Below, piece after piece: positions 25,219-60,373 of a stretch of DNA of 64,000 bases; positions within the stretch are counted from its first letter, which is position 1, and each line of letters opens with the position of its first letter. Below the pieces are notes generated by a model. The model was not told where the DNA came from. It saw nothing but the letters and a program-made list of their open reading frames with translations, and searched no databases. A program made the translations under genes and the position numbers. This DNA is from a virus: IMG/VR virus record IMGVR_UViG_3300042402_001861, positions 62,001-126,000 of that record; one strand, 5' to 3'.

Positions 25219-25629
25219 TCAAGCCTCCGTATTATCTATTGATTTTGAAGATTCGGCGGTTTCGATGTCCTTGGCGTACTTCTCAAACGCTTCCTCGCAT
25301 TGTTCGCGAGTGAGGAAAGGCCCGAAGAAATCCGTTGAGGCTTCGTTCCAGAAAATCCACCCCATGTGAACGGGGGAATAATCAACCGGATCGTTCTTAC
25401 GCAACTTGATCACGCTTGCCTTGGGGTTGTTGTAACGCTCGTTGGCAACCTTCTGATAGGTGCTGATCCACTCGCAAACCTCAAAGTCTGCGGGGAAGTG
25501 CTTGAGCAGATTCCGTGCCCGTTGCCGAATTGGCTTTGGAACCTTCGGAGACTTCTCGGGGTCCATCAAGTCCTTCAGGAAATTGCGAGTGTTCATGAGC
25601 GAAATGTAGTTTTCGTAAGGCAGCGTCAT
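25219..25629 (-). CDS. BPSL0761-like protein
   Basis: 136 residues. The N-terminus MTLPYENYISLMNTRNFLKDL, DPEKSPKVPKPIRQRARNLLKHFP is the signature of the BPSL0761 family, small proteins of bacterial chromosomes with no known function. The C-terminal 60 residues, with an aromatic GWIFWNEASTDFFGPF patch and an acidic end, are extra. Likely an accessory gene from a bacterial source. Confidence 0.6.
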   Translation of the reverse strand: MTLPYENYISLMNTRNFLKDLMDPEKSPKVPKPIRQRARNLLKHFPADFEVCEWISTYQKVANERYNNPKASVIKLRKNDPVDYSPVHMGWIFWNEASTDFFGPFLTREQCEEAFEKYAKDIETAESSKSIDNTEA

Positions 25630-25630
25630 G

Positions 25631-25909
25631 TCAACCTCCGTATTGGTCAGGAATCATTTCATCTGCAAGCAAGGCAACCGACAATTCTCTAATCACCTTG
25701 TATGCCCAAGTTCGCCGTTCTTCCTTCATGGAATCGGGCAACCTTTCATACGGCACGAAATTCTTTTTCATTTCCTGTGCCTCGTCTTGGTTGATCTTGC
25801 CCGAATCGATGAGATTGGAGACTATCGACAGCCAATGGGCGTGTTCGATTTCCGCCATCCGTTCGATGAACTTCGGATCATTGATCGTCTGTATTGGGCT
25901 TTGCTTCAT
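25631..25909 (-). CDS. RyR-like domain protein
   Basis: 92 residues. MAEIEHAHWL near the N-terminus and VPYERLPDSMKEERRTWAYKVI at the C-terminus fit the RyR-like domain found in bacterial and phage proteins; the repeat in ryanodine receptors reads similarly. In phages the role is not established. It overlaps the 3' part of the next gene upstream by about 30 nt. Confidence 0.55.
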   Translation of the reverse strand: MKQSPIQTINDPKFIERMAEIEHAHWLSIVSNLIDSGKINQDEAQEMKKNFVPYERLPDSMKEERRTWAYKVIRELSVALLADEMIPDQYGG

Positions 25910-26168
25910 TTGGCTTTTCCTTCGCCACGCTCACAGCGAGGACTTGTTGCAGTTTGCTGAGAGTGTTCTTGAGAAAGTCCCGACTTGGAATCACGCCGGG
26001 GCGAGGATACACGGCAGAATCAAGAACCATCTTGAGTCGATTGAGCAATGCTTCCTTGCTTTGAAGCCTTTCCTCAAGTTCGCGATAGCGAATGCGATCA
26101 GCCTCGGTTGGCTTTCCTTGCCATCCGAGCATCATGTCCCCAATTCGATTTCTGATCGTTCTCTTCAT
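25878..26168 (-). CDS. Hypothetical protein
   Basis: 96 residues, helical and basic with ELEERLQSKEALLNRLKMVLDSAV as a short coiled coil and a Lys/Pro/Asn-rich C-terminus. It is part of the early minus-strand operon that begins at the promoter near 26690. No family recognised. Confidence 0.5.
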   Translation of the reverse strand: MKRTIRNRIGDMMLGWQGKPTEADRIRYRELEERLQSKEALLNRLKMVLDSAVYPRPGVIPSRDFLKNTLSKLQQVLAVSVAKEKPNEAKPNTDDQ

Positions 26169-26202
26169 GGCGAATCCCCATCCTACACATTATGTAGGTT
26201 GT

Positions 26203-26655
26203 CTAACGGGAATGCCTCTTCCGTGCTGCAAAGAATACTGCAATGCCAAGGACAGCAAGGGCACCCGGCGCAGGAACATCAGGCGGTTCACAATCTGCGC
26301 CATTGGCTAGCGTCGAAGCAGCCATGCAGACGCTTTCGACCCGATCATGGATAACAGGAATGAACATCTCCTGATCCACTCCCTGAACGGTCATCACAAG
26401 CCGTCCTTCATTGTAGATTTTGTGAATCCAGAATCCTTGGAAAGATCCCATGAAGTGCTTGTTTGGCACGACAGGATAGTTTGCCACCGTGTTGCCGTAA
26501 ATCGACGGTGCGATGGGTTCTGTGATCGTGAACTGCGTGTCAAACACCAATCGGTCGGTGAAGGTGACTTCTTGGTAGATTGCGCCTTGATACTCAGACC
26601 GCGAGAAGGTCTGGCCGTTTGTCATGTACAGGGTTGATGTATTGCTGATAGCCAT
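26203..26655 (-). CDS. Secreted-type protein with PEP-CTERM-like C-terminal anchor
   Basis: 150 residues. The body is beta-rich (VTFTDRLVFDTQFTITEP). The last 24 residues read VPAPGALAVLGIAVFF followed by AARKRHSR: a Pro-rich signal, a hydrophobic helix and an Arg/Lys/His tail, the PEP-CTERM architecture used for exosortase-type sorting. No N-terminal signal peptide is obvious. This is very unusual in a phage. The -10 of an early promoter ends 7 nt before the ATG, so the mRNA is leaderless. Such tails are abundant in Planctomycetota and Verrucomicrobiota. Confidence 0.65.
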   Translation of the reverse strand: MAISNTSTLYMTNGQTFSRSEYQGAIYQEVTFTDRLVFDTQFTITEPIAPSIYGNTVANYPVVPNKHFMGSFQGFWIHKIYNEGRLVMTVQGVDQEMFIPVIHDRVESVCMAASTLANGADCEPPDVPAPGALAVLGIAVFFAARKRHSR

Positions 26656-26662
26656 TTGGATC

Positions 26663-26691
26663 AGTATAGGCACGAACGCAATTCAGGTCAA
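26663..26691 (-). promoter_or_regulatory. Early promoter, leaderless
   Basis: Minus strand TTGACC, 17 nt, TATACT, ending 7 nt before the ATG at 26655. It overlaps the stop of the upstream deaminase-like gene. Confidence 0.75.
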
Positions 26692-27068
26692 GTGTTTGCT
26701 TGCGTGAATTTGGCGATTCCGCTGCCCGTGGTGTAGTAGATGTTGTCAAACACTTCCATGCACCAAGGCAGACACTTGGGACATGGGCGACTCAGCCTTT
26801 CATTGCCGAACCGATTGAACCTGAAATTCCAAAGTTCAATGCCTTCCCTGTCTTCGCACTTTCTAAATGCATCAAGTTCAGAGTGCAGTTCATCGAAAAG
26901 GTAGCCGTACTTCTTTGCCATTGGATGGGTCTTCATCAGGTTTGTCCCAACGGAGATCACCCGTCCTCTCTTGAGGATGATGCTGCAATGGCGCTTCGGC
27001 CTGTCAATGTGCAGGCAGAGTTCCTTTGCAAGGCTGTAGATGTTGCACGGACAGTCGATGTTCTTCAT
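26688..27068 (-). CDS. Cytidine/deoxycytidylate deaminase-like protein
   Basis: 126 residues. His62-Ser-Glu64 in LHSELDAFRKC and Cys96-x-x-Cys99 in RPCPKCLPWC form the zinc and proton-shuttle motifs (HxE...PCxxC) of the cytidine deaminase superfamily. It is short and has extra cysteines. The substrate could be a nucleotide or a nucleic acid base. ATGA overlap with the upstream gene indicates an operon. Confidence 0.65.
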   Translation of the reverse strand: MKNIDCPCNIYSLAKELCLHIDRPKRHCSIILKRGRVISVGTNLMKTHPMAKKYGYLFDELHSELDAFRKCEDREGIELWNFRFNRFGNERLSRPCPKCLPWCMEVFDNIYYTTGSGIAKFTQANT

Positions 27069-27475
27069 GCCGTCAGGGCATACGAAGTGCTGTAATTATT
27101 TTCGAGATTTCCGTTGGTCAACGACAAATCCGACTGCTGCTTCTTGATCAAGACTTTCCCGTCTTCATCAAGAACGGGAACAAGCCCATCCTTGATGTAT
27201 TCGTCCCACAATCGCCTCGCTTCTTCCCGAGTCACGGTGAGCATGGTTGTCTTTCCAATCATGCTTGTGCCGTCAGGAAGTCTCCGAATGAACACAGTCA
27301 TGTGATCGGTGGATTCCGGCTTCTTGAGCGAAACGCCATCACGGAACACTTCTGCAAAAGCAAACTCAACGGTGTGTGGCAGGCTTGCGGTGTCGAAGCC
27401 AACCGGTGCCGTCAGCGTGTAGTAGAAAGTGATGACACAGAAACCGTTTGCGGGTTGGTTGTTGAATTCGCCCAT
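27065..27475 (-). CDS. Hypothetical protein, leaderless early gene
   Basis: 136 residues. The protein is beta-rich at the N-terminus, then TREEARRLWDEYIKDGLVPV, a helix also found in small phage and bacterial proteins of unknown function. An early promoter's -10 (TAAGAT) ends 6 nt before the ATG. No family recognised. Confidence 0.55.
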   Translation of the reverse strand: MGEFNNQPANGFCVITFYYTLTAPVGFDTASLPHTVEFAFAEVFRDGVSLKKPESTDHMTVFIRRLPDGTSMIGKTTMLTVTREEARRLWDEYIKDGLVPVLDEDGKVLIKKQQSDLSLTNGNLENNYSTSYALTA

Positions 27476-27693
27476 TCCCGCATCTTATCAGATGTCTTCT
27501 TGTGTGTCAAGCGAGAATTTTCACGCTGCTTGGCTTTGTAAAGACCTTCTGTCATGCCACAATGCTTTCCGATCCCATAACCTCGCTTATACCCGAAACT
27601 GTAAAGCCAGATTTGCGATGCGGTCAGTAGGGTTGCGAGGGAGATTCCAAAAAAGACTGTTTCGATTACTTCCAATGCTTTGATGTTTACCAT
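27412..27693 (-). CDS. Small membrane protein
   Basis: 93 residues from MVNIKALEV. One membrane helix (TVFFGISLATLLTASQIWLYSFG) is followed by a basic tail with KHCGMTEGLYKAKQ. It overlaps the next gene and contains that gene's promoter. A CATACT 5 nt before the ATG may be its -10, with no clear -35. Confidence 0.5.
   Translation of the reverse strand: MVNIKALEVIETVFFGISLATLLTASQIWLYSFGYKRGYGIGKHCGMTEGLYKAKQRENSRLTHKKTSDKMREWANSTTNPQTVSVSSLSTTR
27482..27510 (-). promoter_or_regulatory. Early promoter, leaderless
   Basis: Minus strand TTGACA, 17 nt, TAAGAT, 6 nt before the ATG at 27475. It lies inside the 3' end of the upstream gene. Confidence 0.7.
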
Positions 27694-27745
27694 AGGACAG
27701 TATGTTGCCCTTCGCAACTTTTGAACCAAACCTGAATGTTTGAAA

Positions 27746-28045
27746 TCAGGATCGGCGCTTGACCGTCTTCTTGGCGATCTTCTTCGTCTTGGTCTTCAAC
27801 TGTGTGATGACCTCGGCTTCCTTCCGTGCCTTTCGCTTGTTGATGTACTCAATGATGATGGACGGCTCAAGCAGGCCAAAGAGGGTAAAGAATGCCCCAA
27901 ACAGCATATATTCCTTGCCGTGGTTGCTGCCGAGCGAGAACCAACACATTGCCATCAGTCCGCAACCAAACCCAAACCAACGGGTAAAGATCATGTCACC
28001 GATGTTATACGAATTGTCGCCAATCTTTTCCTTGATGAGTCTCAT
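27746..28045 (-). CDS. Small membrane protein
   Basis: 99 residues with a GGAGG site. Two membrane helices (FTRWFGFGCGLMAMCWFSL and YMLFGAFFTLFGLLEPSII) and a strongly basic C-terminus (TKTKKIAKKTVKRRS) that would face the cytoplasm. ATGA-type overlap with the upstream gene. Function unknown. Confidence 0.55.
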   Translation of the reverse strand: MRLIKEKIGDNSYNIGDMIFTRWFGFGCGLMAMCWFSLGSNHGKEYMLFGAFFTLFGLLEPSIIIEYINKRKARKEAEVITQLKTKTKKIAKKTVKRRS

Positions 28046-28344
28046 TGTGAAGCCTCCATTGCTTCTTCTAGGGTGCATCGAACCATGAAGCCGGGTGTGC
28101 CTTCGCCCATCCATGCTCCAACTACATTGTGTTCCATCCATTCGATGGCTTCTTCCTCTGTGGGAATGCCTTGAGCCAAGAGTATACCAACACACTTCTG
28201 ATAGTCATAGACAAATATCGCCGGTTTTCCGACTCTTCGAATGACTCCGATGAATGCCTTCTCAAAGCCATCGGCCTTGAGTGTTTCATTCAGGTTGGGC
28301 TTGACTTCATCCCAAGTCTTCTTGGGCTTCGCTGTCTCGCTCAT
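28042..28344 (-). CDS. Conserved small phage protein
   Basis: 100 residues. FEKAFIGVIRRVGKPAIFVYDYQKCVGILL, EEEAIEWMEHNVVGAWMGEGTPGF is a pattern widespread in phages and proteobacterial prophages, without known function. The start overlaps the 3' end of the preceding gene by 38 nt. Confidence 0.6.
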   Translation of the reverse strand: MSETAKPKKTWDEVKPNLNETLKADGFEKAFIGVIRRVGKPAIFVYDYQKCVGILLAQGIPTEEEAIEWMEHNVVGAWMGEGTPGFMVRCTLEEAMEASQ

Positions 28345-28972
28345 AGTCGCTTTCCTTCAACTTTCTCTGGATCTTCTTGGCCCAGATTTCCATGATTGAC
28401 AAAGGATACTCAATCGACTCAAACTTGAAGCCTCGGGCGGTGGGAGAATTGCGTCCCTTGACCAACTGCGTGTAGATGCCGTCCAACTTCATCGGGCTGA
28501 ATTCACCGATTGGTGCAACGACATTCATACCTGGCCATGCATCTGCCCGTGTGCCGATTAGGACTGCATCCTTGCGATTGGGATCCTTGAATAGGACGCA
28601 ATCCTGCCCAAACTTCTGTCCCATGCGCTTGGCGAATCCCTTCACGGCTCCTACCTGTGCAGGGCTGTTGTCCCTGCCGATGACCATGAAGGATTCCTCG
28701 GTGACCTTTACCTTCTTGTCGCCGTAATCTTCCTCGTATCGTCCGAGCATCTTGACGAACCCGAACCCCGCAGAGCGAATGTCATTTTCCAACTTTGCAT
28801 TGTTGGAACGATTGGTCTGCAAGGAGATAAGTTCTCCTGTCTGCTTGTCCTTGAATCGGAACGCAGTAAGCAGGGCAAACGGGCGATCCTTGATATGCGA
28901 AGCAACTCGCGAAAGCGAGATTTCGTTGAGTGGCTGACGGTCGAATCTGTCGTTTGTATCGTCATCATGCAT
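28307..28972 (-). CDS. DUF3293-like protein
   Basis: 221 residues. The middle has PFALLTAFR, NRSNNAKLENDIRSAGFGFVKMLGRYEED and VTEESFMVIGRDN, as in DUF3293 proteins (N...L...GF, E-S-F patterns). The C-terminus is a basic helix. The start chosen is the ATG overlapping the previous gene by 8 nt. Function unknown. Confidence 0.5.
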   Translation of the reverse strand: MHDDDTNDRFDRQPLNEISLSRVASHIKDRPFALLTAFRFKDKQTGELISLQTNRSNNAKLENDIRSAGFGFVKMLGRYEEDYGDKKVKVTEESFMVIGRDNSPAQVGAVKGFAKRMGQKFGQDCVLFKDPNRKDAVLIGTRADAWPGMNVVAPIGEFSPMKLDGIYTQLVKGRNSPTARGFKFESIEYPLSIMEIWAKKIQRKLKESDYERDSEAQEDLG

Positions 28973-29153
28973 CGCTTGCGCTCCCGTTTGAATCCTGATT
29001 TCTTGAGTTCTCCAACTGTATGTAGAGTCTCTTGATTTCCTCAAACGCCTTGGAAGAAGTGAACTTCCCTTCCTTCTCCAATTGCAAAATCCATGCTGTC
29101 TTTCTCGCAAACTCTCCGATGTTCGCATGGACAATGAAATCTTCAATAAGCAT
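28965..29153 (-). CDS. Small helical protein
   Basis: 62 residues, helical, with FARKTAWILQLEKEGKFTSSKAFEEIKRLYIQLEN. An AAAGGA site precedes the ATG. It sits 28 nt downstream of the tmRNA 3' end. Function unknown. Confidence 0.5.
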   Translation of the reverse strand: MLIEDFIVHANIGEFARKTAWILQLEKEGKFTSSKAFEEIKRLYIQLENSRNQDSNGSASDA

Positions 29154-29181
29154 GAAAGTCCTTTCTTTGGTGACTAGTGAG

Positions 29182-29520
29182 TGGAGATGAGGGGAGTCGA
29201 ACCCCTGTGTTGAAATGACCTACGCAACGGCACCTACATGAATAGTCCCTGTCTGTTGTACTTGCCTTGGGCAGGGACACCCTTGGCAAGTTTTTCGCCG
29301 TTCATCTTATGAACCAAAGCACGGCGAAGGCTTTGTGTTCAAGTCCCGATGTCTTCGAATCGTACCCTATCGGGGTCAGTCACGATTCGTTCGCCGCTTA
29401 AGCAGCGAGGGCAAGTCTGCGGTTGGCAGTTCTTGTTTTGATTGCATTTTTACGAAGCCTAGCAATCTTCTTCGTCATGCTCCGTTGTTTTGCTCATCCA
29501 ATCGAAACCTATTCATCCCC
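29182..29520 (-). ncRNA. ssrA: Phage-encoded tmRNA (ssrA)
   Basis: The 5' end GGGGATGAATAGGTTTCGAT and the 3' end (GGGGTTCGACTCCCC T-arm, then TCATCTCCA) form a 7-bp acceptor stem with a G3-U70 wobble, the alanyl-tRNA synthetase identity element. The CCA is not encoded. The tag frame (29398-29445) encodes AIKTRTANRRLALAA followed by TAA; LALAA is the classic degradation signal. tmRNA rescues stalled ribosomes and tags the products for ClpXP. Length 339 nt is typical. Pseudoknots were not folded by program. Confidence 0.9.
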
Positions 29521-29525
29521 AAAAA

Positions 29526-29635
29526 GGTTAGGAGGGATTTTCACCCTCTTTCCTGCTTCATCGGTCAATTGAGTAGACCGTTTTACGCAGGCGAGTCTCT
29601 TGTCAAGACCGTGTGTTCATACCACACCGCTAACC
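29526..29635 (-). ncRNA. tRNA-like RNA of unknown type, upstream of tmRNA
   Basis: About 110 nt, closed by GGTTAG/CTAACC. Inside are a hairpin GTGTG-7-CACAC, a hairpin GTCT-7-AGAC, a long arm CCTGC...GCAGG with inner stem CGGTC/GACCG, and a T-arm-like hairpin GAGGG-TGAAAAT-CCCTC directly before the closing strand. The T-loop has G at the usual Psi55. No clear anticodon loop. Five T's separate it from the tmRNA 5' end. It resembles the RNA at 60191-60294 in layout. Confidence 0.4.
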
Positions 29636-29652
29636 AAACGAATCCAAGTGAA

Positions 29653-29847
29653 TTACTTGGCAACAGCAGTCGTGACGATTTGCCAAGCGGCGGTCAGCCC
29701 CTCGGCCACAAAGTTCACGCCCTGCCAAGCGAACGGCAGCAGAGCAAGCGTGATCATGAGGCTGCGGGTAACGCCGACCTTCGAAAGAAGGCACGACAAC
29801 TTGTCACAACCACCTGTGACCGGGCAACTGTTCTTAACCTTATCCAT
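29653..29847 (-). CDS. Small protein with membrane segment
   Basis: 64 residues, AAAGGAG 8 nt before the ATG. N-terminal Cys-rich part (CPVTGGCDKLSC) followed by a hydrophobic region LMITLALLPFAWQGVNFVAEGLTAAW. It is the last gene before the tRNA-like/tmRNA pair on this strand. Unknown function. Confidence 0.5.
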   Translation of the reverse strand: MDKVKNSCPVTGGCDKLSCLLSKVGVTRSLMITLALLPFAWQGVNFVAEGLTAAWQIVTTAVAK

Positions 29848-30004
29848 TTGAATTCTCCTTTCTGGAATGGTTAATATCTCTGGTCTTCCTGACCTTGGTA
29901 CGCCTCGGCTTCTTCTTGCCGAACACAGCGTCCCAATTCTTAGACCACATCCTGTAGTCTACGGGGCGATATGAATCGCCCTTACCGGCTTCTCCGTTGA
30001 GCAT
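29840..30004 (-). CDS. Small conserved phage protein (NGEAGKGDxYRPVD type)
   Basis: 54 residues. LNGEAGKGDSYRPVDYRMWSKNWDAVFGKKKPRR is a pattern shared by short basic proteins in very many tailed phages, with no known role. Its ATG overlaps the upstream stop (TGATG) and its end overlaps the next start by 8 nt. Confidence 0.7.
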   Translation of the reverse strand: MLNGEAGKGDSYRPVDYRMWSKNWDAVFGKKKPRRTKVRKTRDINHSRKENSNG

Positions 30005-31036: not shown

Positions 31037-32050
31037 TCAATAGATGACCGAGCCGCAAGAGATCATGGCCAAGTCGCTGTTGTACATGACCTGTGCCAAC
31101 TTTCTCATGTCATATTCAGGAACCCATCCAAGTTCTTTTCGAGCCTTGGATGAATCCCCAAGTAGATATGGAACTTCGTTGGGACGCATCAGGCGAGGAT
31201 CGACGACCACATAGTCATGCCAATCCCCAAGCCCTGCATGGGTGAATACTTCATGCAAGAAGTCCTCAACTCGGTATGTCTCGCCCGTGGCAACCACATA
31301 GTCGCTTGGATTGTCCTGCTGCAACATCAGCCACATGGCCTTCACATAGTCCATGGCATGACCCCAATCTCGCTTGGCATCAAGATTTCCTAGACGCAAC
31401 TTGTCCTGCATTCCCTTGGCGATCCTTGCAGCAGCCATCGTGATCTTTCGGGTCACGAATGTCTCGCCTCGCCGTGGGCTTTCGTGGTTGAACAGGATGC
31501 CGCAGGAAGCGTGGATTCCATAAGCCTCGCGATAGACACGGACCATGTTGTGTGCATACAACTTGGCAACCGCATAGGGAGACACGGGCATCATCCTGCT
31601 GTTTTCGTTGTAACCCTTTGGTCCGAAATCCGTGCTGTCTCCGTACATTTCCGAAGACGATGCCTGATACATCTTTGTCATCGGGGAGATGGAACGAATT
31701 GCATTGAGGATGTTCTGTGTGCCTTGGCAGATTCCGTTGGTTGTGTAGTCGGGAATCTCAAAGGAAACCGCAACATGGGACTGCGCCGCAAGATTGTAGA
31801 TTTCGTCAACTTCCTCGGTCATGAGCAGATGGTTCATGAACGATGCGTCCTGAAGGTCATAGTACTTCAGGACGAAGTTTGGATGTGCAATGAGATGGTC
31901 AATGCGACCCGTGCTGATGGTCGAAGTCCTGCGCTTCAATCCAATGACACGATAGCCCTTGGAGAGGAGCAGTTCGCCAAGATAGGAACCGTCCTGTCCG
32001 TTGACCCCCGTTATTACGGCAGTCTTCTGTAGATTAGAATCTTCCTGCAT
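31037..32050 (-). CDS. gmd: GDP-mannose 4,6-dehydratase
   Basis: 337 residues. Rossmann NADP motif TGVNGQDGSYLGELLL, then the SDR catalytic elements (ASSSEMYGD with Ser/Thr-Glu, and SPYAVAKLYAHNMV with Tyr-x3-Lys), and NHESPRRGETFVTRKIT, all typical of Gmd. It converts GDP-mannose to GDP-4-keto-6-deoxymannose, the first step to GDP-fucose or related sugars. Phage copies are known in large myoviruses and cyanophages, perhaps for surface glycan changes. The next pathway enzyme is not in this window. Confidence 0.95.
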   Translation of the reverse strand: MQEDSNLQKTAVITGVNGQDGSYLGELLLSKGYRVIGLKRRTSTISTGRIDHLIAHPNFVLKYYDLQDASFMNHLLMTEEVDEIYNLAAQSHVAVSFEIPDYTTNGICQGTQNILNAIRSISPMTKMYQASSSEMYGDSTDFGPKGYNENSRMMPVSPYAVAKLYAHNMVRVYREAYGIHASCGILFNHESPRRGETFVTRKITMAAARIAKGMQDKLRLGNLDAKRDWGHAMDYVKAMWLMLQQDNPSDYVVATGETYRVEDFLHEVFTHAGLGDWHDYVVVDPRLMRPNEVPYLLGDSSKARKELGWVPEYDMRKLAQVMYNSDLAMISCGSVIY

Positions 32051-32900: not shown

Positions 32901-32908
32901 CGTTGAAT

Positions 32909-32978
32909 TCTCCCGCTAGGATTCGAACCTAGACAAGCAGGACCAAAACCTGCTGTGCTACCGTTACACTACAGGAGA
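32909..32978 (-). tRNA. tRNA-Gln(TTG)
   Basis: 70 nt, acceptor TCTCCTG/CGGGAGA, anticodon loop TTTTGGT (anticodon TTG), T-arm CTAGG-TTCGAAT-CCTAG. CCA not encoded. Confidence 0.92.
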
Positions 32979-33037
32979 GCATTTATGCTGCCCTGCGTTG
33001 GTGATGGTTGTTCATGTGACTCATTGCGACTCAAGAA

Positions 33038-33045
33038 TATTTAGG
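33038..33045 (-). promoter_or_regulatory. Late promoter-like element in the tRNA block
   Basis: Minus strand TCCTAAATA read as TAAATA, between tRNA-Lys and tRNA-Gln. It could give late transcription of tRNA-Gln and genes 32900 downward. Confidence 0.4.
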
Positions 33046-33048
33046 AAT

Positions 33049-33120
33049 GCTCTCGGCGGGACTTGAACCCACAACCAATTGATTAAAAGTCAACTGCGCT
33101 ACCGATTGCGCTACGAGAGC
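33049..33120 (-). tRNA. tRNA-Lys(TTT)
   Basis: 72 nt, acceptor GCTCTCG/CGAGAGC, anticodon loop CTTTTAA (TTT), T-arm TGTGGG-TTCAAGT-CCCGC-like. CCA not encoded. Confidence 0.92.
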
Positions 33121-33125
33121 GTAGC

Positions 33126-33197
33126 GTCCCTGACTGGATTCGAACCAGTAGCCTACTGCTTAGAAGGCAGTTGCACTATCCATTATGCTACAGGGAC
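33126..33197 (-). tRNA. tRNA-Arg(TCT)
   Basis: 72 nt, acceptor GTCCCTG/CAGGGAC, anticodon stem ACTGC/GCAGT with loop CTTCTAA (TCT), T-arm CTGG-TTCGAAT-CCAG. CCA not encoded. Confidence 0.93.
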
Positions 33198-33210
33198 ATT
33201 TCTCTCCCCG

Positions 33211-33489
33211 TCATTTGCTTTCAACAATCTCACGCACCGTTTCAAACTTGATGATCGAATCGATGCGGAACGAACGCCAAGCGGACTTGTCCGTGTCCCA
33301 TGCCACGATATGGTCGTTGCTTTCTGTGAGCCCACGATTCTTCTTCGTGGACGAAGAGGGTTCCTTCGGTGGCGGAAGGATTGATTCATGAAGCGTACAA
33401 GTCATGTCACGCTCCGTGCCGTCAACCTTCTTGAACTTGACTGAGCAGATTCCGATCTTCAGATTGTCGATGATTTCTTGCTTGTTCAT
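33211..33489 (-). CDS. SH3 beta-barrel protein (WYL_2/DUF2693-like)
   Basis: 92 residues. ICSVKFKKVDGTERDMTCTLHES and VAWDTDKSAWRSFRIDSIIKFE are the conserved ends of this short phage family, a Sm-like SH3 barrel of unknown role. It lies immediately upstream (5') of the tRNA block. Confidence 0.7.
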   Translation of the reverse strand: MNKQEIIDNLKIGICSVKFKKVDGTERDMTCTLHESILPPPKEPSSSTKKNRGLTESNDHIVAWDTDKSAWRSFRIDSIIKFETVREIVESK

Positions 33490-33493
33490 GGTG

Positions 33494-33607
33494 TTACTTC
33501 TTTGGCTGCTTTGGCTTCTTCGGTGCCGCTGCCTTCTTTGGTGCCTTCGTCTTCTTCGGTGCTACTGCCTTCTTTGGCCCTACGGGTTTCTTTGGCTTAA
33601 TTGCCAT
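33494..33607 (-). CDS. Lys/Pro/Ala-rich histone H1-tail-like peptide
   Basis: 37 residues built from repeats of the type APKKxxAPKK, about 40% lysine. The composition is that of an H1-tail or other nucleic-acid-binding tail. The ATG overlaps the stop of the preceding gene by 11 nt. A GGAGG lies 10 nt upstream. It is real only if this overlap is translated; no homology test was possible. Confidence 0.45.
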   Translation of the reverse strand: MAIKPKKPVGPKKAVAPKKTKAPKKAAAPKKPKQPKK

Positions 33608-34019
33608 CTCCAAACAACCTCCACTTTCGGCTGAAAGTCTTCCACTTCGTGATGTCATCATCCTGCGACTTGATCTCGTCCTTGGGATGATACACACCGT
33701 TGTCCCACTCGGGTGCTTCCTGCTGTTCGTCCTCGTATTGCTTGAGTTCTTCCTCAAATTCATCAAGGACTTCGTGGATCATCTTGGCCTTGAACTGCAA
33801 AATCACGCAGTCTCGCTCATCGGCGTTCTTGGCCTGAAGCAATTCTGCAATGATGTCGATTGGCACCGCCACATTCTTGGCCTTGCATAGAGTGCCGAAC
33901 ATATCGATGATGCACAGATAAGCGGAGATGCGCTCGTTCTGACGGTCGATCAGAACCCGCTGCTTGTCCACGATGCTCTTCAGCAGGGTGTTGGAATTGT
34001 CTTCGGGGGTGGTTTCCAT
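33597..34019 (-). CDS. Hypothetical helical protein, leaderless early gene
   Basis: 140 residues. Helical and charged: a coiled-coil N-terminus (LLKSIVDKQRVLIDRQNERISAYLCIIDMFGTLCKAK), then an acidic segment and a basic aromatic C-terminus (KWKTFSRKWRLFGDGN). An early TATACT ends 7 nt before the ATG. No family recognised. Confidence 0.55.
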   Translation of the reverse strand: METTPEDNSNTLLKSIVDKQRVLIDRQNERISAYLCIIDMFGTLCKAKNVAVPIDIIAELLQAKNADERDCVILQFKAKMIHEVLDEFEEELKQYEDEQQEAPEWDNGVYHPKDEIKSQDDDITKWKTFSRKWRLFGDGN

Positions 34020-34026
34020 TGACGAA

Positions 34027-34055
34027 AGTATAGGTGACGCTTGATTACCTGTCAA
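34027..34055 (-). promoter_or_regulatory. Early promoter, leaderless
   Basis: Minus strand TTGACA, 17 nt, TATACT, 7 nt before the ATG at 34019. It is back to back with the late promoter of the ADP-ribosyltransferase gene. Confidence 0.85.
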
Positions 34056-34056
34056 G

Positions 34057-34064
34057 GATAAATA
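34057..34064 (+). promoter_or_regulatory. Late promoter, leaderless, for ADP-ribosyltransferase
   Basis: GATAAATA ending 5 nt before the ATG at 34070. No ribosome binding site is possible. It overlaps the -35 of the divergent early promoter's flank. Confidence 0.65.
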
Positions 34065-34069
34065 CGGGC

Positions 34070-34768
34070 ATGAAGAGCCTGTTGGAACATCTTTTGCAGG
34101 AGGATGACTGCGCCAAGATTTTTGGAAATGTGCTTTTTGGAAATCCTCCCGGCGAAGAGCGAGACAGCACCAAGGAAAGAGACATTAGAAAGGCAGTCAT
34201 GTCCTTCTTCGGTGATAACTTGACCTACAAGCAGAAGCCCGAAACGGTGGTCAGAGCATTCCGTGAATTATTGAAATGCAAGGGCAAGTTCCCCGACGAA
34301 CTTCAACCCAATGTCAGCCTGCTGTATCGGGGCATCCGCCTGAAAGAAAGTGAAATTGTGAAAATCAAGGATTGGAAGTTTGCCGACGATACAAAGCAGG
34401 AATTGGTCGGCACCGGGACATACAAGTCCAAGTATCCGATTCAGTCATGGTCGGCAAGCAAGATCCGTGCAGAGTTCTTCTCAATCGACTTCCCCGAATG
34501 GCGAAGACAGAAGATGCTGCCTGCAATCGTCATGGCGGTTCCTGACAAGTCCGAAATGCTCTTCAACACCAAGTTCGTCATGGAACTGAAGAAGAGCGCA
34601 AGAGGAACGCAGAAGTACTACATGGAGCAGGAGATCGTCCGTGTCAGCGAGAAGAAGATCAACTGCAAGTTCTTCCTACCCACCCAATATGTCAGGATGG
34701 TCGATGGCCTGTCACGAAAGACAATCGATCACCTCGTCAGCACGGCAGGTTTCCGCCCGACAGCCTAA
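34070..34768 (+). CDS. Putative mono-ADP-ribosyltransferase, virion cargo candidate
   Basis: 232 residues. R-S-E class motifs are in order: Arg87 in LLYRGIR, Ser-Trp-Ser at 126-130 in IQSWSASKIRAEFF, and Glu186-x-Glu188 in YYMEQEIVRVS, which is the biglutamic ExE of arginine-targeting enzymes such as T4 Alt and ModA. The N-terminus MKSLLEHLLQE|DD resembles a T4 capsid targeting sequence. It is the only plus-strand gene in a long minus-strand region and has a leaderless late promoter. T4 Alt is injected and modifies host RNA polymerase; a similar role is inferred. It is related in sequence pattern to 49656-50618. Confidence 0.7.
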   Translation: MKSLLEHLLQEDDCAKIFGNVLFGNPPGEERDSTKERDIRKAVMSFFGDNLTYKQKPETVVRAFRELLKCKGKFPDELQPNVSLLYRGIRLKESEIVKIKDWKFADDTKQELVGTGTYKSKYPIQSWSASKIRAEFFSIDFPEWRRQKMLPAIVMAVPDKSEMLFNTKFVMELKKSARGTQKYYMEQEIVRVSEKKINCKFFLPTQYVRMVDGLSRKTIDHLVSTAGFRPTA

Positions 34769-35004
34769 AGAATGTTCTTGGCCTTGAGCCGCTGCACGAT
34801 CTGATCGAACTCTGTATTCTTGCCGTCGATCAGCAACTGAGCCGCATCGGCAAGGGCAAGAAGTTCCCTCAAGGATTCCACGGTCTGGTTCACGAAGGGG
34901 TATGTCACCTCCATGAATATCTTGTTCCTCTCCGATTTCTTCTGCATCGCTGCGGCACTCTCAAGGCGATCAGCAAGTTCTCGGGCGGTGTGGTGGTGTC
35001 TCAT
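34765..35004 (-). CDS. Small helical protein
   Basis: 79 residues, AAGGAGG site. ARELADRLESAAAMQKKSERNKIFMEV...LRELLALADAAQLLIDGK is fully helical. It overlaps the convergent ADP-ribosyltransferase gene by 4 nt. Late promoter upstream. Unknown function. Confidence 0.5.
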   Translation of the reverse strand: MRHHHTARELADRLESAAAMQKKSERNKIFMEVTYPFVNQTVESLRELLALADAAQLLIDGKNTEFDQIVQRLKAKNIL

Positions 35005-35043
35005 GGAACCTCCTTGGGTAAGACATGGCAAAGAGAACAAATG

Positions 35044-35051
35044 TATTTAAC
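35044..35051 (-). promoter_or_regulatory. Late promoter
   Basis: Minus strand TGTTAAATA, 39 nt before the ATG at 35004, just after the tRNA-Thr 3' end. Confidence 0.5.
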
Positions 35052-35056
35052 ACGAA

Positions 35057-35127
35057 GCCATCTGCGGGAATCGAACCCGCGATCTGCTCATTACAAGTGA
35101 GCCGCATTACCACTCTGCTAAGATGGC
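35057..35127 (-). tRNA. tRNA-Thr(TGT)
   Basis: 71 nt, acceptor GCCATCT/AGATGGC, anticodon stem GCTCA/TGAGC with loop CTTGTAA (TGT), T-arm GCGGG-TTCGATT-CCCGC. CCA not encoded. Confidence 0.93.
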
Positions 35128-35132
35128 GTGAA

Positions 35133-35214
35133 TGGGAGCGGAAGGATTCGAACCTTCGTAGCCAATGGCAGCAGATTTACAGTCTGCCCTCGTTGTCCGC
35201 TTGAGTACACTCCC
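35133..35214 (-). tRNA. tRNA-Tyr(GTA)
   Basis: 82 nt with a long variable arm as expected for bacterial tRNA-Tyr. Anticodon stem GCAGA/TCTGC with loop CTGTAAA (GTA), T-arm GAAGG-TTCGAAT-CCTTC, discriminator A. Confidence 0.93.
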
Positions 35215-60028: not shown

Positions 60029-60101
60029 GGCACGGTAGACCAACGGCAGAGTCAGTTGACTCAAAATCAACATAGTGTGGGTTCGAATCCCACCCGTGCT
60101 A
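60029..60101 (+). tRNA. tRNA-Leu(CAA), class I-like structure
   Basis: 73 nt. Anticodon stem GTTGA/TCAAC, loop CTCAAAA (anticodon CAA), T-arm GTGGG-TTCGAAT-CCCAC, discriminator A. The variable region has only 5 nt, whereas bacterial tRNA-Leu has a long variable arm. First acceptor pair is G-T. Confidence 0.75.
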
Positions 60102-60113
60102 CTATAGATACTT

Positions 60114-60185
60114 GCGAATGTAACTCAGCGGTAGAGTCTCGGTTTTCCAAACCGATGGTCGTGGGTTCGAATCCCATCATTCGCT
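60114..60185 (+). tRNA. tRNA-Gly(TCC)
   Basis: 72 nt. Acceptor GCGAATG/CATTCGC, loop TTTCCAA (TCC), T-arm GTGGG-TTCGAAT-CCCAT-like. CCA not encoded. Confidence 0.93.
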
Positions 60186-60190
60186 TATAT

Positions 60191-60294
60191 GCGTAGTTAA
60201 GCAGCAGGGGATAAACCGCTAGGCTTACTAGGGTCGCCTACTTGCAAGGGGTGATCTGATACAGAGCAACAGAGGTGCAAGTCCTCCGCTACGC
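60191..60294 (+). ncRNA. tRNA-like RNA of unknown type
   Basis: 104 nt between tRNA-Gly and tRNA-Asn. Closing stem GCGTAG/CTACGC, T-arm-like GAGG-TGCAAGT-CCTC (G at the Psi55 position), a long arm TTGC...GCAA with inner stem TCTG/CAGA, and an irregular 5' half. A CTTGCAA segment would read as an Ala(TGC) anticodon loop but lacks a good stem. Either a degenerate tRNA or an RNA like 29526-29635. Confidence 0.4.
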
Positions 60295-60300
60295 TTCGAT

Positions 60301-60370
60301 GGCCCATAGCACAACGGTAGTGCGATCCGCTGTTAACGGATAGGTTGAAGGTTCGAATCCTTCTGGGCCA
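60301..60370 (+). tRNA. tRNA-Asn(GTT)
   Basis: 70 nt. Anticodon stem ATCCG/CGGAT with loop CTGTTAA (GTT), T-arm GAAGG-TTCGAAT-CCTTC, acceptor GGCCCA/TGGGCC, discriminator A. Confidence 0.93.
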
Positions 60371-60373
60371 GTT

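What the first reader, a model, noticed from the sequence alone, without database searches (positions are those of the whole stretch)
29182..29520. Phage-encoded tmRNA with an LALAA tag
Seen: paired 5'/3' tRNA-like ends with G3-U70, canonical T-arm, and a tag frame ending LALAA-stop. Known: tmRNA is common in bacteria and rare in phages. Inference: it may rescue ribosomes on damaged host mRNA or support translation of leaderless mRNAs; the tag differs from common bacterial tags, so its source may show the host.
Basis: partly seen in the sequence, partly recalled or inferred. Interest (0 to 1): 0.75.

Follow-up and report, generated by a model that had tools for sequence, protein, structure and literature searches.

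The report
Phage tmRNA beside a tRNA-like RNA
A T4-like virus of bacteria carries its own copy of tmRNA, the RNA that rescues stuck ribosomes, which is a known kind of thing; but next to it sits a conserved, apparently undescribed tRNA-like RNA that recurs in related viruses, sometimes inside split tmRNA genes and sometimes among tRNA genes.

Summary
Rfam RF00023 scores 129.3 bits (gathering score 47). It has an acceptor with G3-U70, T-arm, H5 and all four pseudoknots. Four relatives keep the fold with 11 compensatory pairs, and the same tag, ANRRLALAA, with only synonymous or stop-codon changes. ARAGORN misses it. The record is a 177-kb T4-like virus contig without a detectable smpB, so it probably borrows host SmpB, AlaRS and ClpXP. 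Phage tmRNAs are known (about 2% of phage genomes; PMC9004378), so this part is a new member of a known kind.

Outside the coordinates, 29526-29635 (-), five bases from the tmRNA, holds a conserved 110-nt tRNA-like RNA that matches no Rfam family. It occurs in 23 viral contigs: directly upstream of one-piece tmRNA (5), inside the intervening segment of permuted tmRNA (6), packed in tRNA arrays (10), and upstream of tRNA-Pro plus permuted tmRNA (2). Covariation is strong and the fold is recovered de novo. Its function is unknown; a tRNA-like processing unit or stable phage RNA seems likeliest. The leaderless-mRNA idea and host inference are not supported.

The parts
29182..29520 (-). one-piece tmRNA (ssrA), 339 nt mature, CCA not encoded
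   Evidence: RF00023 129.3 bits; 463 of 480 pair cells kept and 11 compensatory pairs over 5 phage relatives
29398..29427 (-). tag reading frame ANRRLALAA + TAA (resume codon GCC)
   Evidence: identical tag in five phages; only AAC/AAT and TAA/TGA changes
29514..29520 (-). acceptor stem 5' strand GGGGATG (G3 of G3-U70)
   Evidence: sequence; pairs with 29183-29189
29183..29189 (-). acceptor stem 3' strand CATCTCC; discriminator A at 29182
   Evidence: sequence
29190..29206 (-). T-arm AGGGG-TTCGACT-CCCCT
29440..29475 (-). pseudoknot PK1
   Evidence: 60 of 60 cells paired, 1 compensatory pair
29391..29408 (-). helix H5 with the tag stop codon in its loop
   Evidence: 30 of 30 cells paired
29345..29389 (-). 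pseudoknot PK2
   Evidence: 70 of 70 cells paired, 2 compensatory pairs
29294..29341 (-). pseudoknot PK3
   Evidence: 88 of 90 cells paired, 4 compensatory pairs
29245..29291 (-). pseudoknot PK4
   Evidence: 75 of 85 cells paired, 2 compensatory pairs
29526..29635 (-). conserved tRNA-like structured RNA directly upstream of the tmRNA
   Evidence: 15 distinct homologs, 95.8% of pair cells standard, 17 pairs with changes on both sides; de novo RNAalifold fold; no Rfam family
29653..29847 (-). 64-aa small ORF with a hydrophobic stretch, upstream neighbour; similar sequence seen upstream of the element in L088, L112, L101 and L107
   Evidence: no Pfam match
28965..29153 (-). 62-aa ORF, DUF7219 family, downstream neighbour
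   Evidence: 42.3 bits
28307..28972 (-). 221-aa S-AdoMet lyase family protein, second downstream neighbour
   Evidence: PF23780 42.7 bits; 78% and 72% identical homologs in the two related tmRNA phages

Best explanation
The feature is a functional one-piece tmRNA of a T4-like phage. It is most likely expressed during infection, matured by host RNase P and 3'-end enzymes, given CCA, charged with alanine through the G3-U70 pair, and delivered with host SmpB and EF-Tu to ribosomes stalled on cut or truncated mRNA. It then switches them to a nine-codon frame that adds ANRRLALAA for host ClpXP-type proteolysis, so that ribosomes remain available during infection. Immediately upstream lies a separate conserved 110-nt RNA with tRNA-like topology: a closing stem, two small arms, a long two-part variable-like arm, and a 5-bp/7-nt T-arm-like hairpin stacked on the closing stem. 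It is probably tRNA-derived or a tRNA mimic that is cut out of tmRNA and tRNA precursors and helps to separate them (tRNA punctuation), possibly persisting as a stable RNA. Shown: structure, conservation, tag constraint, phage context, lack of a detectable smpB on this contig, and the recurring locations of the element. Inferred: expression, charging, tagging, use of host SmpB, and every function of the upstream element. The confidence below is for the tmRNA part; the processing role of the element alone I would put near 0.4.
For: Full-length RF00023 match; fold better than all shuffles; all helices including four pseudoknots kept with 11 compensatory pairs and a conserved tag in five related contigs; T4-like structural genes in the window; no SmpB in the 177-kb record, with the control positive in 10 of 14 named genomes. 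Element: a covariance model built from three sequences finds more copies at 64-130 bits; 95.8% of cells paired against 78.2% shuffled, covariation 0.529 against 0.214 and at most 0.112 when slid; a sequence-only alignment gives the same fold; located 5' of one-piece tmRNA, in the intervening segment of permuted tmRNA, or packed between tRNA genes; weak cross-matches of its model to class II tRNAs (17.1 bits to window tRNA-Tyr; 19.9 bits to T4 tRNA-Ser).
Against: No transcript data. No promoter-like site in 28900-30000. ARAGORN does not call the tmRNA. The pairing counts use a structure drawn on the window sequence. For the element: its 6-bp closing stem, mostly non-canonical T-loop (TGCAAAT), and the T-loop insertion in L101 and L107 argue against recognition by all tRNA enzymes; Rfam's tRNA model does not match the window copy.
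Confidence: 0.8

Rival explanations
1. The tmRNA is a captured bacterial gene that no longer works or only marks a former integration site.
For: Prophage integration into ssrA is well known, and fragments occur in phages (discussed in PMC9004378).
Against: The gene is complete; five relatives keep every helix with compensatory changes and an identical tag; the contig carries T4-like structural genes, typical of lytic phages.
Confidence: 0.05
2. The upstream element is a genuine but highly divergent class II tRNA.
For: Cloverleaf-like topology with a long variable-like arm; tight packing between tRNA genes; the L181 copy has a canonical-looking T-loop TTCAAGT; model cross-hits to tRNA-Tyr and tRNA-Ser.
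Against: ARAGORN finds none of the 15 at default thresholds; no tRNA match from Rfam at E below 10 for the window copy and only a 17-nt T-arm match for L181; 5-nt or otherwise non-standard anticodon-like loop; T-loop insertion in L101 and L107.
Confidence: 0.12
3. The element is an anti-defence decoy or guard RNA that occupies host tRNA-targeting nucleases, such as those that cut anticodon or variable loops.
For: Phage-restricted so far (0 exact matches in 84,980 cellular species), tRNA-like, elaborate variable-like arm; a defence system that cuts the variable loop of tRNA-Tyr is known (Septu, PMC13096335 abstract).
Against: No direct evidence; strict conservation is in the small arms and their loops (CGG.GUGGUA.GAACAC.CGG), not in the variable-like arm.
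Confidence: 0.2
4. The element is a self-cleaving ribozyme or riboswitch that controls or trims the neighbouring RNA.
For: Invariant unpaired nucleotides (18 of 36 invariant columns); Pistol ribozymes lie about 2 kb downstream in four related contigs.
Against: No match to any Rfam ribozyme or riboswitch above threshold; in arrays and intervening segments it is followed by other RNAs rather than by an mRNA leader.
Confidence: 0.15

Closest known systems
Standard one-piece tmRNA (Rfam RF00023) and its phage copies
   Same: Full architecture: tRNA-like domain with G3-U70, PK1-PK4, H5, tag frame ending LAA.
   Different: Short tag ANRRLALAA with two arginines; missed by ARAGORN; tRNA-like RNA directly upstream.
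Permuted two-piece tmRNA of marine T4-like phages (Pelagibacter phage Mosig, Melnitz, cyanophages)
   Same: Same phage superfamily and function class; the same upstream element lies in the intervening segment of permuted genes in six contigs.
   Different: The window gene is one-piece; Mosig, S-SSM7 and S-CAM1 have permuted genes without the element.
T4 species 1 and 2 RNAs (rnaC, rnaD)
   Same: Small stable phage RNAs annotated without a function in a tRNA cluster (AF158101); rnaC has a T-arm-like 3' hairpin.
   Different: No significant match of the element model (rnaC 10.5 bits, below T4 tRNA-Ser at 19.9); different junction.
tRNA-Ala gene inside the intervening sequence of one permuted tmRNA (nominally archaeal, PMC11915505)
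   Same: A tRNA-type RNA placed in a tmRNA intervening sequence.
   Different: [quoted passage not shown] here it is a recurrent non-canonical RNA in phages.

Membership tests
tmRNA (RF00023) | covariance-model score above the curated cut-off over the whole length | tested here: met
   129.3 bits against 47, positions 1-374
tmRNA (RF00023) | alanine identity pair G3-U70 and T-arm | tested here: met
   sequence; invariant in five relatives
tmRNA (RF00023) | four pseudoknots and H5 | tested here: met
   all present; 11 compensatory pairs in the whole RNA
tmRNA (RF00023) | tag reading frame under selection, hydrophobic AA end | tested here: met
   ANRRLALAA in five of five; synonymous or stop changes only; few sequences
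tmRNA (RF00023) | works with SmpB | tested here: inconclusive
   no smpB in the 177-kb record or in six related or element-bearing contigs; host SmpB presumed; the records may be incomplete
tmRNA (RF00023) | alanylation and trans-translation | not testable with these tools
   needs experiment
permuted tmRNA (RF04321) | acceptor piece upstream of the coding piece | tested here: not met
   RF04321 24.2 bits, below its cut-off of 47; the gene order is standard
tRNA (upstream element) | tRNA model match and canonical anticodon and T loops | tested here: not met
   ARAGORN default 0 of 15; no RF00005 match at E below 10 for the window copy
T4 species 1/2 RNA (upstream element) | homology to rnaC or rnaD | tested here: not met
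   no match above tRNA background; none in whole T4
any Rfam 15 family (upstream element) | score above threshold | tested here: not met
   best match within 29510-29660 is RAGATH-18, 15.4 bits against a gathering score of 44.9, E 1.9

The most novel reading that the evidence does not exclude
The upstream element founds a previously undescribed class of phage-restricted tRNA-like noncoding RNA with its own role in infection (for example tmRNA/tRNA precursor maturation, a stable regulatory RNA, or a decoy for tRNA-cutting defences), which has settled repeatedly next to, or inside the intervening segment of, phage tmRNA genes and in phage tRNA arrays.
Probability: 0.5. Interest if true: 0.7.

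Novelty: new variant of a known kind. Interest (0 to 1): 0.5.

Why it matters
The tmRNA itself adds one more T4-like phage to those that carry their own ribosome-rescue RNA, and one that ARAGORN-based pipelines overlook. The neighbouring RNA matters more: a strongly conserved, covarying RNA that sits at the 5' boundary of one-piece tmRNA, in the excised segment of permuted tmRNA, and between tRNAs. It gives a concrete handle on how phage tmRNA and tRNA precursors are cut apart, on how one-piece and permuted phage tmRNA genes relate, and perhaps on what stable RNAs in phage tRNA clusters do, a question open since T4 species 1 and 2 RNAs (general knowledge; annotated without function in AF158101).

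Tried and rejected
Permuted reading of the gene: the RF04321 score is below cut-off. Two weak tmRNA hits elsewhere in the record (14.3 and 11.9 bits) fall on the tRNA genes at window 60029-60185. Element as T4 rnaC/rnaD homolog: rejected. Element in isolate phages: nothing credible by BLAST and none in seven T4-like isolates by model. A resemblance to SAM or cobalamin riboswitch motifs (GGTGCAAATCC) was considered because an S-AdoMet lyase gene is near, but no Rfam riboswitch matches. About half of the 36 contigs from the first element pattern, and three of the five new ones from the second, were chance (no model match). No Pistol ribozyme was found in window 25500-28500 although relatives have one.

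Full report
Observation. RF00023 matches 29179-29520 at 129.3 bits over the full model, E = 2.9e-50, with a gathering score of 47. G1 is at 29520 and the discriminator A at 29182; the bases after it are CTC, so CCA must be added. The third acceptor pair is G-U, the T-arm is AGGGG-TTCGACT-CCCCT, and the tag frame is GCC AAC CGC AGA CTT GCC CTC GCT GCT TAA = ANRRLALAA. The minimum free energy is 3.83 standard deviations below dinucleotide shuffles. ARAGORN does not find it at default settings, and at half its thresholds it builds a wrong model, which explains why such a gene can go unannotated.

Constraint. A scan of viral contigs for the 3' end gave 32 loci. Four of them (L088, L112, L101, L107) hold close relatives of this tmRNA, and a protein search with the S-AdoMet lyase-like neighbour returned two of these same contigs at 78% and 72% identity. 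Aligned over 344 columns, 463 of 480 pair cells are standard pairs, and 11 pairs show compensatory changes, spread over helix 2 and PK1, PK2, PK3 and PK4 (the structure was drawn on the window sequence, so the pairing percentage is biased upward, the compensatory changes less so). The tag is ANRRLALAA in all five; the only differences in the frame are AAC/AAT and TAA/TGA. This is what a working tmRNA should look like.

Context. The window is positions 62001-126000 of a 177,364-base virus record. It encodes a T4-type terminase, tail sheath, gp20 portal and gp23 capsid protein. gp20 is nearest to cyanophages and to Pelagibacter phage Mosig, at only about 51-53% identity. No SmpB is found in the record, so host SmpB must serve if the RNA works. 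Neighbours on the same strand are a 64-aa ORF upstream, then the element described below, the tmRNA, a DUF7219 protein and an S-AdoMet lyase family protein. The immediate flanking sequences look alike in L088, L112, L101 and L107.

What is known. Phage tmRNAs are established: 402 of 18,146 phage genomes (about 2%; the paper gives 2.3%) in one survey (PMC9004378), and 79 unique phage sequences among 97,179 in the 2025 tmRNA database (PMC11915505). They have been proposed to keep host translation running or to recycle host proteins (PMC9004378). The finding itself is therefore a new member of a known kind. The leaderless-mRNA idea has no support here, and the host could not be named: an exact pattern from the 5' end has no match in 84,980 species genomes.

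A second RNA next door. Reading upstream, 29526-29635 (minus), separated from G1 by five T, folds as a multi-arm junction with z = -3.19 (on 29521-29650). The same element stands at the same place in L088, L112, L101 and L107. A covariance model from three copies (R1) found further copies in contigs drawn by short sequence patterns, and a second model (R2) found two more after another pattern. Together there are 23 viral contigs, several of them near-identical. In 15 distinct sequences (pairwise identity 56-99%), 95.8% of pair cells are standard, 17 of 31 pairs have changes on both sides, and the covariation score is 0.529, against 0.214 for shuffles and at most 0.112 for slid partners. RNAalifold on a sequence-only alignment returns the same fold for 26 pairs, 16 of them with two-sided changes.

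Where it sits. In five contigs it is directly upstream of a one-piece tmRNA. In six (L151, L143, L149, L127, L160, L163) it lies between the acceptor piece and the coding piece of a permuted tmRNA, that is, in the segment that is removed on maturation. In ten it lies in tRNA arrays, in L142, L157 and L138 two bases after tRNA-Arg and three bases before tRNA-Gln; in the seven of these contigs searched in full with one or both models no tmRNA was found, though all are fragments. In L181 and L182 it precedes tRNA-Pro and a permuted tmRNA. Five element-bearing contigs carry gp23, so the carriers that can be typed are T4-like. There is no exact match to its core in 84,980 cellular species, none in seven T4-like isolates by model, and no credible BLAST match in 50,697 phage records.

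What it may be. Topology and place say tRNA-like: a closing stem, a 5-bp/7-nt arm, a second small arm, a long two-part arm in the variable position, and a 5-bp/7-nt hairpin stacked on the closing stem. Its model cross-matches class II tRNAs weakly, and the L181 copy has a canonical-looking T-loop. But it is not a canonical tRNA: ARAGORN calls none of 15 at default settings, Rfam's tRNA model does not match the window copy, the closing stem has six pairs, and L101 and L107 carry an insertion in the T-like loop. It is not T4 rnaC or rnaD by model and matches no Rfam family. My leading view is a tRNA-derived unit that is cut from tmRNA and tRNA precursors and may persist as a stable RNA; a decoy for tRNA-cutting defences and a ribozyme or riboswitch remain open. 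The nearest precedent I found is a single permuted tmRNA, nominally archaeal, with an intact tRNA-Ala in its intervening sequence, called unique by its authors (PMC11915505).

Limits.

Noticed in passing
window 29526-29635 (-): Conserved tRNA-like structured RNA upstream of the tmRNA, present in 23 viral contigs in several kinds of place (described in the report).
   Followed up: yes
L088:4010-4077, L101:5030-5097, L107:2895-2962, L112:3260-3327: Pistol ribozymes (RF02679, 58-61 bits) about 2.2-2.3 kb downstream of the tmRNA in four related phage contigs; none found in window 25500-28500 at E up to 5.
   Followed up: partly
window 28307-28972 (-): S-AdoMet lyase family protein (PF23780) two genes downstream of the tmRNA; possible anti-restriction enzyme.
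   Followed up: partly
window 31037-32050 (-): GDP-mannose 4,6-dehydratase family protein (PF16363, 395.9 bits), a sugar-nucleotide enzyme.
   Followed up: no
L181, about 170 to 28 (-): Permuted tmRNA whose intervening segment lacks the element and instead seems to hold several other small hairpins; the element lies upstream of tRNA-Pro.
   Followed up: no
window 32908-35214 (-) and 60029-60371 (+): Eight tRNA genes in separate groups (Gln, Lys, Arg, Thr, Tyr; Leu, Gly, Asn).
   Followed up: no
L100:3687-3779: Bacterial small SRP RNA match (42.7 bits, cut-off 40) just before a tmRNA in a 309-kb viral contig.
   Followed up: no
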